64,000 nucleotides of DNA, taken from the NCBI GenBank assembly GCA_903813345.2, contig CAIIXF020000007.1:20821564-20885563 (forward strand), read 5' to 3'. The DNA comes from Owenia fusiformis. Lineage: Eukaryota > Annelida > Polychaeta > Sabellida > Oweniidae. The notes below the pieces were generated by a model. It was not told the origin of the DNA and did not search any database. It worked only from the letters and a program-made list of their open reading frames with translations. Positions 38,705 to 50,700 of this stretch are shown here, one piece after another (position 1 is the first letter of the stretch; every line of letters begins with the position of its first letter). Made by a program: the position numbers and the translations under genes.

Positions 38705-41700
38705 GTAGGGCCAACATTTCTGCCACTACATTTAACAATAACTAAAACTTTTCATTTCACTGTTTTAACAGTTTCTGTTCACTGGATAAAGCATCACATA
38801 ATTTGGAGATAAGAATTAAAGGTTTTTACTTTAAGATGCTTTATCGTGACATAAGTATTAAGATAAGATGCTTTAATGTGACATTTTAATGTTGTGATGG
38901 GATGAATATCAATATTTTCTTTTTTAACTTCAACAAATAATATAGGGGTGAACTGGTTCATATATATTGCATTGTTATATTTAACATAAACACTTGGCAT
39001 TTACATGTTTTAGCACATTTCTATAGTTTAACAGAATGAAATCTTCTTGCATGGACATACTTTACAGTTTTTGTTTTGCTTTTATAATATTTTCTACATG
39101 CAAAATGTAACAAACAAACAAATGGTTCCCTGCTTTATATCATTTTCTAATCCTGTATGAAGCTCAACCTATTGGAATATGTACATTCACACATACGCAA
39201 ACATGAACTGAGGTATCCCAAAATATTTATGGGAATGCGCAAATGGCAATATTTGAAGAACAAAACAATTGGAATCCCTATAAAAAAAGTATGAATCATT
39301 TACATTATTTTTTAGTATGTGTGTACTTGTCAGTTTAATGTAATTTCAATGGGTTGAGTAAAATGCTTCATTTATTGTTCTTAATGAAAGTTGATATATA
39401 TGTAAATTTAATATGGACAGCTCATGCTTTTTTGGGGAATTTAAAGAGAAAAGTAGAAAAATCATACATTTTCACGCGGTACTAACTCCGACCGTTAATT
39501 TGAATTTTTGACCTACCAGATGCTTGAAAATCACGGATTGCAAGTCTCATACTGCACCGTTTTTCTTCAAACTTATACCATTAAAAGCAAAACAAAATTG
39601 CCTTTCTGTCGATGCATTACTTTATTGTAAAAAGTCCCTCGTTCTAGTAGCGTTTTGGTCCCCAGCTGTTAGAAGGCCTTCTTACAGCTGGGGACCAAAA
39701 TGCTCTGGAAGTAGGGACTCTGTTTTGGAGAATAATGTACCAACAGAAAGGGATTTTTGTTATGCTTTGAATGGAACAAGTTTGAAGAAAAACAGTGCAG
39801 TATGAGACTCGTAATCCTTGATTTTCAAACATCCGGTAGGTCAAAAATTCAAATTAACGGTCGAAGTTAGTACCGCATGATTTTAATAGCCTGGTCACAC
39901 ATTAAATTATAATGATTTGTCAAAAATTAGCCCCCATTTGAACTCTTCATATGATGGGATGTGTGAGGATAGTTTTTCAGATTTATTTGACTTCATTCCA
40001 AACAGTATCCTGAGCAAATCTTTACAATAATTCACTGTTAACCAGTGAATCAGCACATTTGCCACATGCTGTTTTTAACAAATAATTCTATTAGAAATTA
40101 CTGAGAAAGCCTGACCTTTATTTACAATATATCAACCTTCTGAGAGCCTGAATCTAACTATATATGTGTTGTGTTTTGTGTTCTTCTGTACTAAGGATGG
40201 GCAACTAGCAACAAGCTCTCCCAGTAAACGACTTGGTTCAAAGCCCTTACAGCGCAATAAGGTAAATCTTCAGAAAGGAGATTGGATTTCTTACTATTTT
40301 TTGGTTGTTCCACTTTTGTTAGAATTTAGCATGTTTTCCATTGTTAGAAGTTTTTAAGAGTACACTTTCTTGTTAACCTCTTGAATCCCAGGCTCTAAAA
40401 TCGGTTGAAACCAGAGAATTTTTCATTTTTGCCACCTTTTGACATTTAAAAAAATACCTATACACCTTTAGATGTTCAACTTAGTAAATTAGATGGCAGA
40501 GATCATTTCTATACATTTTAAAACAAGTTTTGTGTAAATTGAATGACAATTGTTCAAATAAGAGCAATATTAGTGAAAAATGTTGTGAAGGAATTTCTCG
40601 TCATTCTGGGTTTCAAGGTCATATCTGAGGTGACGAGAAATCTCGTCACTCCAGGTAGTCCAGAGGTTTATATTACAACATGTCCCTATAACATAAACTT
40701 TTTCAAATATAAGGAGAATCCCTTATGCATGTATGAGTTGAATTATGTTTTGACTTTATTCCATGTTATAAAATTCTACTTAAAATCGTTATAAGATAAA
40801 TTAACATGTTTTTGTACTGATGAGATCCAACATTATTTTAATTTATTACTTTATGTTAAAACATTTTAATTAGTTAGCTGTTACTTGTCTCATTTTATTA
40901 AAAAGTCCCGCTGCATGATTTATTTTCATATTTGTTTAGATTTAGATTTTGTGGATTGTTTTGAAACTGCCTTACTGATATCCCCCATTGAATTGTGCTG
41001 TATCCCCAACATGCATGAACATTGAACAATGTATGTGCTGTTTTCACTAATAGAACCAAGTGAGTCGTACCCAGTCCATGAGGAGCCCAGGCCCCGCTAC
41101 CAGACCCACTACCCTCGTGAGATCCAACAGCTCTACCCCTGTAAATCCACATACTTCCCAGGGGCCAGGACAAGGAGCGAAATCTCCTATGGGTCCAAGC
41201 AAATCCCCTGCTGGTTTACGGAAAAGAACGAACAGCAATCCCAAGCTCCTTCACTCCTCAAGTCGATCCAACAGCATCGATTCACCCACTAACAGCAGCT
41301 CTAGTAAAGCTAGCAGCATGGGACCAACTAACACTAGTACTACTAACAGATCTGGCACTAACACTACCACCATTAATAGTACCCCTAACAGGAGTAATTC
41401 AATGTCTTACAAATCAAGCTCCCCAAGTGGATCTGTAACCAAGATCATTACAACAACCAGCAAAGCCACTACACCCAGCAAGCCAAGCTGGGTGAAAGGG
41501 GGTAGTTCTGGGTGGGTGAAACCTGTCAACTCAACAAAGACCCCTTCAAGGGAGAGGAGGTCATCTACATCCTCCACAAATAGTGCTTCCTCAAAAGAGA
41601 CCTCTTCTACTAAGGTAGAGCAATGTTGAATGCACCAGGGGCCTGTGGATCATTTGTGTTCAGTATAAGGAGCATGTCTATGGTGAAGCACTGGCTTTAG

Positions 41701-47700: not shown

Positions 47701-50700
47701 CAAAAATATCACCGACAAAATACTATGACGATGCAGATGCATCTGTTAGGCCCTCGTCAATTAAGGCTGCCGTTATCGCCAGCAGTGATACAGGTCACAT
47801 GAACTCAGATGACCTTGGGGGGAATGAGGTGAGTTAATGCTTGAGGAGGGAAAGAAAAGAAAATGTCATAATGGTCATGCATTTTTTGAATAAAAATAGA
47901 GGAGTTGAGTGGAATTAGCAAGGAATGTACTGAAGGGTGGGCGGCAGGTTCAAGATGTCCTTCGATTATTTATACCTTATTTTTAGAGCCTCTATACTTG
48001 CAATACTTTGTGTTGGGGGTGGCTTATACTTTAATTTTGAAAAACCTTTCATTGATTAAATTGAATTGAAGAAAGTTTGGGCGATATAGAGAATACCTCC
48101 ATCTGTTTTGAGAAATGACTTCTAGTAATGTTGTCTGACACATATTTGATGGGATTTGCAATGTCGTAGTGTTGACATTATCAAGTTTCTTTTGTTTTAT
48201 GGCCATTTATCATATTTCAATAGCATATACCTCTCCTTCCTTCTACCTATTCTTCTCAATCCCTCTATATTTTATGTTAATAGACCTCTTCTGAAGTCTT
48301 CAGCTATGTTAAGAAAAGCATAAGAACCAGAGATTTCTTGGAGGATTTGGAAAGAAATGAAGTTTGCATGACTATATTGACCTTTTTATGCTTTAGAAAT
48401 GTCAATTTGCTGTAATTGATGTTACTAATGAGACCAAACACTACATGCATTTGCTTGCTTTCTGCATGAATCATTAATTGTTTTAATCGTATTCTATCTA
48501 ATTTTGCTTTGATATTGTCACAAAATATGTGTGTTCTTTAGAGTTACTTAACACCCTGTGTACATGTACCTCCTGTTTGACTCCACTATCCTCCCATTGA
48601 AATAAATAACTACCTTAACATATAGTCATATACCTTACCTGTAACATATATTAATTTTCCTACTATAAACATCTCTCCTAATTAATTTTTGATAATTGTA
48701 ATGATAATTATGTCTCGCCCATTCTAAGGAAAATAAATGCGAGGAAGTTATTACTAATGCATGTACTAATGATAATTTGGTGGTAGCTCATGGCTTTCAA
48801 TATGCTCAAATCAGTGTATAATATGTAATTCACGAATGGACACTTTTAACACATACTTCACTTGATTTGATATTCAAGTCCCTTCGATGTCTTAATATAT
48901 ACTGTTTCTTTAATTAATACAAAACTGAAATATAATATTCAAAGATATAATATTTTAATTTTTATATGCTCTGCTACATTTAACAAATTAAGTTTCCATG
49001 ACAACTTTAATAACCATGACAACTTTACCCACTATTGTCTGAATAATTTAATGATGTGGGATTCCTAATTTACAATCTATTTCTAATAAGAATAAGAATA
49101 AAGACAAACAACTTTATTATATAACAACTTTTATCTTGATAATTTTTATATACAACTTTACATATTAATCTAAAAATTATATAGATACACTTTATATCAC
49201 CCATAATATACATTTTGTGTTGGCACAAATGCGTTTGACACTCTGAATTTAGACATGTAAATAATTTGCTTTGATTACTTCTGCTTAATATACAGTAGTC
49301 CTGCCTCTATACCTCTTCTCTAGGAGAAATCTATGAAATTACTATTTAAATGTATTTTTGTACAAGACTTTTTGCTAGATTATCAATTTAATGAAGTCCG
49401 TTATAGATATTTATAATGTTCAAATATTTAATCAACATTTCAATATGGTAATCATTTTGTGGTGTGTCATGGCGACTTATCCTGTATTAGAGCTATAATT
49501 TGCTTTAGGTGAGTCACGTGAAGAAGGTGTGGGCACCCCGCAAGTTTGAATCTCCCGACAAAGACATCCCTGTGGAGAATGGCACAGGCCCCAGGACTGA
49601 CCCTGAGGTAGGCGACGATTTTGGCAATAAGTAGTCTGCGAACCCTCCCCATGTGACCCACTCTTGTGGTGTATCTAGTAAGTGGAGTGTGAATTGCATG
49701 GGTGGGGTTCGACTATATATATGAAGCATGCATTTTGGTGATCATATTATACATACATGTATATCTAAATCCATATATTCAATATTGTTGTGAATAGAGG
49801 TGATCTATGATTTCTTGTTTTTTTGTTACAGGTGCAACGATTCTGTTAATAATCATTTAAAGGAATACAAAGCTATGAAATTGACCTAAAGGTCTCTGCA
49901 TGTAGGTCTGCTTCTTGGTTTTATATTCTGAGCCACTGTGAAATGTGATTCGAGTTAAAACATGAATCCTTGAGCAATTTTAATGTATAATACATTTGGA
50001 AAATCAGAATAACAGATCAAATAAATATCCTGAAAGTTAAGAGTTTCACTCATCTGGCCTTGTGTTCCTTTTTAAATAAAGTCAGTTTTCTGACATTGTC
50101 ACTCTCGGATGACCAAACAGTTAGGAACATGTAAATATTAAAATTTTCTTGATTGGAGGAGATCTTATGGCTGATATATTGTAATATGTAATGAAGATAA
50201 TGTTTTACAGTATTTTTTGTGACATTCCAGGGCACTCAACAGACTCAGGTATATTGAAGAAAGTGCTTGTTCCTCTTGTTGATTCAGGATCTGTCTGGAG
50301 CAGGCTTGTAGCCAAGGGATCAGTTTTGTTGAAGTTTCACATATTTTCCCTCAGGATGGGAGGGAGGGGTGAAATCTCAAACATATGGCTGCAGACCTGT
50401 ATTGTAATATAAGAATACCAGAACCCTAATTGTAGTTAGCAGTCCCTTAGTTTATTATACATGTACTCTGATGTTATTAATGTAAGTTATGCAGAGTTAG
50501 ATAAGGGCAGATTATTATTATCCTGTATCTCTGCAGTATGTTTATGTCAGAAGAACAGTCAGGAAGGGCATTTCCACATTCGAAACTTGTCCAGATTCTA
50601 ATCCCGCATCATGATCTTGTGTTACTACACCCCACTCCGACTAACATACACACCCTCTACTCAATGATGTGAGGAGACCAGGGGCCATGGAAGACCAGAG

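What the first reader, a model, noticed from the sequence alone, without database searches (positions are those of the whole stretch)
40196..49607. Coronin with an approximately 1,270-residue disordered insertion between propeller and coiled coil
Exon phases and splice sites join a normal CORO2-type propeller (391 residues) to a normal CORO2 coiled coil, but about 1,270 residues lie between them. Known CORO2A/2B proteins total about 480-530 residues. The linker has many basophilic and proline-directed phosphosite-like motifs and could be a hub for actin or microtubule partners. A coronin of this size is, to my knowledge, not a described class.
Basis: partly seen in the sequence, partly recalled or inferred. 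Interest (0 to 1): 0.75.

Follow-up and report, generated by a model that had tools for sequence, protein, structure and literature searches.

The report
Coronin gene with giant disordered insert
An animal-type gene for coronin, a protein that helps organise the cell's actin skeleton, carries four extra in-frame exons that would more than triple the protein's size with a long floppy segment, and their reading frames would let the cell include or leave out that segment.

Summary
Sixteen coding exons (34240-55334) join into one open frame of 1,709 residues (188.9 kDa): a 391-residue coronin domain, a 1,270-residue linker and a class-2-type coiled coil with the trimerisation motif RIRQLE. The 907-codon exon 45108-47828 is not chance: P about 10^-27, and the longest ORF in 60 simulated windows was 230 codons. 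Only one copy was found in its genome, with no Pfam match at cut-off and no significant PDB match. The first and last linker exons (E11, E16) belong to an ordinary class-2 coronin; the extra material is E12-E15 (1,215 residues). E12, the E13+E14 pair and E15 are each frame-neutral, and E11 to E16 in frame gives an ordinary 494-residue coronin. I read this as a giant-exon gene: a short coronin plus an optional disordered scaffold cassette, as in giant ankyrins, rather than a fixed 190-kDa coronin. The insert is richer in SP/TP and RxxS/T than its composition predicts; partners are inferred. No transcript or animal orthologue could be examined. Published short coronins have 450-650 residues (PMC3203266): a new variant of a known kind, moderately interesting.

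The parts
34240..38704 (+). Coding exons E2-E10 (34240-34434, 35538-35654, 36277-36426, 36722-36886, 37144-37260, 37422-37526, 37791-37887, 38210-38322, 38591-38704): 391-residue coronin domain
   Evidence: splice model; PF08953 1.1e-32, PF16300 1.6e-21, PF00400 1.9e-20; PDB coronin-1C 4.3e-150
40196..40261 (+). E11, 22 residues: conserved end of the coronin domain (ISLK|DG...) and start of the linker; phase 0/0
   Evidence: phmmer alignment to coronin-1C runs on to residue 398 of the model
41054..41614 (+). E12, 187 residues, Ser/Thr/Asn/Pro-rich disorder-like linker; phase 0/0 cassette
   Evidence: one match found in own genome, itself
43163..43389 (+). E13, linker exon, phase 0/2
43741..43876 (+). 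E14, linker exon, phase 2/0 (frame-neutral only together with E13)
45108..47828 (+). E15, giant 2,721-nt exon, 907 residues, predicted disordered; phase 0/0 cassette
   Evidence: one match found in own genome, itself; no Pfam match at cut-off and no significant PDB match; mean pLDDT 39.7
49509..49607 (+). E16, 33 residues: class-2-type segment before the coil (KKVW...GPRTDPE); phase 0/0
55188..55334 (+). E17, 48 residues and stop: class-2-type coiled coil with trimerisation motif RIRQLE
   Evidence: motif rule from PMC3203266

Best explanation
This is a class-2 (CORO2-type) coronin gene in which four extra exons (E12-E15, 1,215 codons, one of them a 2.7-kb giant exon) lie in frame between the ordinary pre-linker exon E11 and the ordinary pre-coil exon E16. 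The cell most likely makes at least two products. One is an ordinary 494-residue coronin (E11 spliced to E16). The other is a giant form of up to 1,709 residues, in which each propeller of a trimer is tied to the coil by about 1,270 disordered residues (some hundreds of nanometres if fully stretched). In the giant form the propellers keep actin contact, while the phosphorylatable insert works as a regulated tether and scaffold: proline-directed and basophilic kinases switch short docking segments on and off and set how far the propellers reach or whether they are autoinhibited. Shown: gene model, open frames, domain identity, one copy found, low predicted order, motif enrichment. Inferred: expression, alternative splicing, trimerisation, phosphorylation, partners and the tether/scaffold role.
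For: Complete open frame through 16 coding exons with GT-AG introns and matching phases. The required frame is the only + strand frame open in each of E12-E15, and P(E15 open by chance) is about 10^-27. Coronin domain by Pfam and PDB. The E16-E17 tail scores 122 against the human CORO2B tail (31 of 59 aligned residues identical; best of 1,000 shuffles 52) and 95 against the CORO2A tail (24 of 65; shuffle maximum 51); both human sequences were typed from recall. Trimerisation motif R-[VILM]-X-X-[VIL]-E present as RIRQLE (rule: PMC3203266, passages; sequence). Frame-neutral cassettes and an in-frame 494-residue skip product. Disorder: hydropathy-charge value -0.107 for the linker against +0.184 for the propeller; single-sequence AlphaFold mean pLDDT 39.7, with 749 of 907 residues of E15 under 50. 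[ST]P and RxxS/T enrichment. One paralogue in the same genome (class-1-like by eye) has about 39 residues between coronin domain and coil exon, read by eye from printed stretches, so the insert is not a habit of every coronin there. Precedent: the giant exon of ANK3 is alternatively spliced and holds a serine with a likely phosphorylation-dependent role, and ANK2 has similar splicing (PMC5422562, passages); disordered linker and tail segments autoinhibit the ankyrin repeats (PMC5779224, abstract and outline).
Against: No transcript or protein evidence. Frame-neutral exons make frame agreement weak proof of joining, and 7 of the 9 propeller exons are 0/0 too, so symmetry alone does not argue for optional use. 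E11 and E12 acceptors are weak on a small matrix. Synonymous-codon score of E15 in its own frame (-0.096) is like the control windows (median -0.107) and the lowest of its three + frames; E12 scores 0.031 in its own frame but 0.189 in another. E15 holds a Kozak-like ATG (ACCATGG at 45138-45144, ATG as codon 12) and an AATAAA begins 61 bases past its donor, so internal start or end forms are possible. No animal orthologue could be searched, so conservation of the insert is untested. The human CORO2 sequences are recalled, not fetched, and the propeller's lead for class-2 over class-1 is only 2-3 points.
Confidence: 0.6

Rival explanations
1. Constitutive giant coronin: all linker exons are always included and the gene makes only a protein of about 189 kDa.
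For: Continuous frame and splice sites throughout. Donors of E11-E16 (top 0.3-6.9% of GT sites) are in the range of the propeller donors (top 0.1-7.8%, leave-one-out). Symmetric exons are also common in the propeller part (7 of 9), where skipping would break the fold.
Against: E12, E13+E14 and E15 are each frame-neutral, and the parts that flank them (E11, E16) make a complete ordinary coronin, which is the layout of optional cassettes.
Confidence: 0.22
2. A separate same-strand gene or alternative-promoter transcript starts within the linker region. E15 (with or without E16-E17) would then be translated without the propeller, for example from the ACCATGG in E15.
For: Kozak-like ATG as codon 12 of E15 and an AATAAA at 47889, just after the E15 donor.
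Against: The E12 and E15 frames are closed by a stop immediately upstream, at the acceptor itself (stop-to-stop ORFs begin at 41054 and 45108), so both exons look entered by splicing. E13 and E14 join only in phase 2. E15 ends with a good donor (top 0.5%) in the phase that opens E16-E17. AATAAA/ATTAAA are frequent: 52 between 34000 and 59000.
Confidence: 0.13
3. Annotation artefact: E12-E15 are pseudo-exons, decaying sequence or a repeat in a large intron, and the gene encodes only an ordinary 494-residue coronin.
For: Weak acceptors at E11 and E12; no support from the codon-usage test.
Against: A 907-codon open frame with P about 10^-27 and only the required + frame open in four exons; longest simulated ORF 230 codons; one genomic match each for E12 and E15, so no sign of a transposon family, within the stated limits of that search.
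Confidence: 0.03

Closest known systems
Class-2 coronins (human CORO2A/CORO2B)
   Same: One coronin domain (57.9% and 56.6% identity to recalled CORO2A and CORO2B, 54.5% to coronin-1C), the class-2 pre-coil and coiled-coil tail, and the trimerisation motif stated for most invertebrate class-2 coronins (PMC3203266).
   Different: Linker of 1,270 residues. PMC3203266 gives short coronins as 450-650 residues in all, most with a short unique region.
Giant ankyrins (ANK2/ANK3 giant exon)
   Same: Cytoskeletal adaptor with one outsized exon encoding a long Ser/Thr-rich insert between conserved parts; here frame-neutral, so it can be optional.
   Different: Unrelated protein family; no neuronal expression or splicing data here; ANK3's exon is 7.8 kb (PMC5422562), against 2.7 kb here.
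Class-3 coronins (CORO7/POD) with insect inserts
   Same: A coronin with a long insert without known domains; about 300 conserved residues in insects (PMC3203266, passage).
   Different: This protein has one coronin domain and a coiled coil, not two coronin domains, and its insert is about four times longer.
Class-4 coronin-villin fusions
   Same: Large protein with a coronin domain at the N terminus.
   Different: No villin or headpiece match by Pfam in E12, E13-E14, E15 or E16-E17.

Membership tests
Coronin family | Coronin domain of about 390 residues (propeller and conserved C-terminal extension) | tested here: met
   PF08953 E 1.1e-32 and PF16300 E 1.6e-21, both above cut-off; PDB coronin-1C E 4.3e-150 over residues 5-398
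Class-2 (CORO2-type) coronin | Closer to class-2 than to class-1 by sequence | tested here: met
   57.9% and 56.6% to recalled CORO2A/2B against 54.5% to coronin-1C (scores 1215, 1233, 1178): a small margin in the propeller. The tail match is strong (score 122, shuffle maximum 52). No tree was built; human CORO2 sequences are recalled.
Class-2 (CORO2-type) coronin | C-terminal coiled coil with trimerisation motif R-[VILM]-X-X-[VIL]-E | tested here: met
   RIRQLE in E17; motif definition from PMC3203266. Trimer formation itself not testable; the motif is shared with class-1.
Short coronin (length definition) | 450-650 residues in total | tested here: inconclusive
   Full splice form 1,709 residues (not met); skip form 494 residues (met). 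Which is made is unknown.
Coronin actin binding | No acidic residue at the position of human coronin-1B R30 | tested here: met
   K28 of the model lies opposite the corresponding Arg of coronin-1C in the alignment (coronin-1B numbering from recall); PMC3203266 says Arg is often replaced by Lys there
Class-3 tandem coronin | Two coronin domains | tested here: not met
   One DUF1899 stretch; no Pfam match at its cut-off in E12, E13-E14, E15 or E16-E17
Class-4 coronin-villin | Villin headpiece | tested here: not met
   No such Pfam match in the same exons
Giant-exon (ankyrin-like) isoform system, as analogy | Giant exon included in some transcripts only | not testable with these tools
   No transcript data; only frame-neutrality shown

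The most novel reading that the evidence does not exclude
A giant coronin not described in the papers I saw: a splice-switched class-2 coronin of about 190 kDa whose trimer carries three phosphorylation-controlled disordered arms of about 1,200 residues, acting in this animal lineage as a long-reach actin scaffold, the coronin counterpart of giant ankyrins.
Probability: 0.35. Interest if true: 0.65.

Novelty: new variant of a known kind. Interest (0 to 1): 0.42.

Why it matters
A frame-neutral giant cassette in a class-2 coronin would offer a natural test of what the coronin 'unique region' does, and a second case, beside ankyrins, of a cytoskeletal adaptor whose reach is set by an optional giant exon.

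Tried and rejected
Separate nested gene and non-coding artefact: rejected as leading readings for the reasons given under rivals.

Codon usage as a coding test: the propeller training set is small and its bias weak. E15 scores -0.096 bits per codon in its own frame, like the 96 control windows (minimum -0.158, median -0.107, maximum -0.039), and that is the lowest of its three + frames (-0.062 and -0.021 in the others). E12 scores 0.031 in its own frame but 0.189 in another. Not used as support. Period-3 signal of E15 is high (20.1 against a mean of 3.5 in 62 control windows), but the control stretch contained a neighbouring 1,188-codon open frame (maximum 35.5), so I give it little weight; that frame also lies among the codon-usage controls.

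Internal repeat RP-x-x-x-DIFG (residues 851-859 and 873-881): best ungapped 14-residue score 42, reached by 2 of 30 shuffles, so not significant. By eye, a segment like SIRxKVxxME occurs in E14 ([12 protein letters not shown]) and twice in E15 ([24 protein letters not shown]); its enrichment was not tested. SxIP-like, PxxP, 14-3-3 mode-1, CK2-type and [RK][RK]x[ST] motifs are not enriched, and the PP1-type RVxF pattern is absent (0 against 0.7 expected). Pfam TRIP4_3rd hit in E15 (E 0.035, 14.9 bits, cut-off 27.7) taken as chance. PDB hits of E15 (best E 0.58) and of the tail (best E 0.11) taken as chance or generic coiled coil; the tail found no coronin coil in the PDB.

Search for relatives of E15 in viral contigs: 7 pattern matches, none confirmed; that collection is of viral contigs and says nothing on animal orthologues. 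The tail had one further weak match in the own genome (E 0.81, 32% identity, contig C6), not followed.

Literature: six searches on coronins (listings of at most 15 papers each, one of them empty) listed none whose title or abstract start tells of a coronin with an insert of this kind; one search was on ankyrin giant exons. The library is partial. Species: the assembly has 498 Mb in 525 contigs; Owenia was a guess from memory used only as a search word, and the species is not established.
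Full report
Gene model. Joining exons by GT-AG sites and phase gives one open frame of 1,709 codons from an ATG at 34240 to a stop ending at 55334. E2-E10 encode 391 residues that match the coronin domain in Pfam (PF08953, PF16300, PF00400) and coronin-1C, -1B, -1A and -6 in the PDB (60 of 550 matches shown). An upstream 5' exon is possible; it was not resolved. The window lies in G000 contig C7, whose assembly has 498 Mb in 525 contigs. [quoted passage not shown] its phylum is not established.

Which class. The propeller is slightly closer to human CORO2A/2B (221 of 382 and 219 of 387 aligned residues identical) than to coronin-1C (212 of 389). 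The stronger evidence is the tail: E16-E17 aligns with the CORO2B tail at 31 of 59 residues, score 122 against a maximum of 52 in 1,000 shuffles, and with the CORO2A tail at 24 of 65, score 95 against a maximum of 51. The human CORO2 sequences are recalled and must be checked. The coil has RIRQLE, fitting the trimerisation motif that PMC3203266 reports for invertebrate class-2 coronins with a few exceptions (passages). Because E16 itself matches the segment before the coil in CORO2A/2B, the true extra material is E12-E15, 1,215 residues, rather than the whole 1,270.

Is the insert coding? E15 is open for 907 codons where the frequency of stop triplets in window 9001-32000 (0.0665) predicts about 10^-27, and E12 is open at about 10^-5.6. 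In E12, E13, E14 and E15 the frame demanded by splicing is the only open + frame. Sixty simulated windows had no ORF beyond 230 codons. E12 and E15 each have one match in their own genome, themselves; the tool warns that a missing match does not prove absence. Pfam gave no match at cut-off for E12, E13-E14 or E15, and E15 no significant PDB match. Codon usage did not help.

Optional or fixed? Phases are 0/0 for E11, E12, E15 and E16, while E13 and E14 form a 0/2, 2/0 pair. So E12, E13+E14 and E15 can each be left out without a frameshift; leaving out all four exons gives 494 residues (55.6 kDa), leaving out E15 alone gives 802. Seven of the nine propeller exons are also 0/0, so frame-neutrality is a habit of this gene and not proof of alternative splicing. 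Donors of the linker exons are good; acceptors of E11 and E12 are weak on a small matrix. The genome has two further coronin-like genes on contig C12, class-1-like by eye (no tree). One of them has about 39 residues between coronin domain and coil exon (L002, read by eye from three printed stretches). For the other, a motif scan and a composition filter over L001:3901-9900 found no coil exon, so its linker length is unknown.

What the insert is like. It holds 214 Ser and 117 Thr in 1,270 residues and is low in order-promoting residues. AlphaFold on E15 alone finds no confident fold (mean pLDDT 39.7; 16 of 907 residues at 70 or more; one sequence in the alignment, so weak evidence). The best-scored element is a basic helix, E15 residues 723-745 ([23 protein letters not shown]), a candidate docking helix. 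[ST]P occurs 45 times against 24.6 expected, RxxS/T 30 against 20.2, RRxS 4 against 0.8; [RK][RK]x[ST], CK2-type, PxxP, 14-3-3 mode-1 and SxIP-like motifs are not enriched.

How it may work. Inference only: propellers bind actin as in other coronins, the coil trimerises, and the insert sets reach and adds phospho-switched docking. Precedents are the alternatively spliced giant exon of ANK3, with a serine of likely phosphorylation-dependent role (PMC5422562, passages), and autoinhibition of the ankyrin repeats by disordered linker and tail segments (PMC5779224, abstract and outline). In yeast coronin the unique region is where microtubule-binding and Arp2/3-regulating segments lie (PMC3203266 section 7).

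Novelty. PMC3203266 (abstract, section 7 and found passages) gives short coronins as 450-650 residues, and the longest domain-free insert named in the passages I saw is about 300 residues, in insect class-3 coronins. The listings of six coronin searches showed no report of a class-2 coronin with such an insert, but predicted animal protein sets could not be searched and may already hold such models. Verdict: real, a new variant of a known kind, interest moderate until transcripts and orthologues are seen.

Noticed in passing
window 4566-8132 +: A second giant open frame (1,188 codons), disorder-like by eye, whose end looks by eye like part of a PDZ domain (no Pfam match at E 0.1 or better for the ORF); a neighbouring gene also with an outsized exon.
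   Followed up: partly
window 53302-54284: Inverted repeats of 194 nt (93% complementary) around 595 nt in the E16-E17 intron; a minus-strand frame inside (53567-53791) resembles, from memory, the end of a mariner-type transposase.
   Followed up: partly
window 58911-59822: Large palindrome: arms of 417 nt, 97% complementary, 78 nt apart, downstream of the coronin stop.
   Followed up: partly
window 39472-39880: Foldback element in the E10-E11 intron: 176-nt arms, 84% complementary, 57 nt apart.
   Followed up: partly
L001:3014-3974 and L002:3142-3322: In two other coronin genes of this genome the acceptor and first part of one propeller exon (S-E-L-F-Q-D-D-L-Y-P) is repeated in tandem with its upstream intron: 7 in-register starts 109-116 nt apart in L001, 2 copies 107 nt apart in L002, so repeated 3' splice sites stand before one exon.
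   Followed up: partly
window 62500-63740 -: Part of a minus-strand gene with very acidic D/E-rich frames, reminiscent from memory of ANP32-type acidic tails; no Pfam match for the one ORF scanned.
   Followed up: partly
window 51690-51765: By eye a tRNA-like stretch on the minus strand in the E16-E17 intron; ARAGORN calls no gene, so perhaps a SINE relic. Arms of 33 nt at 51547-51579 and 52017-52049 flank it.
   Followed up: partly
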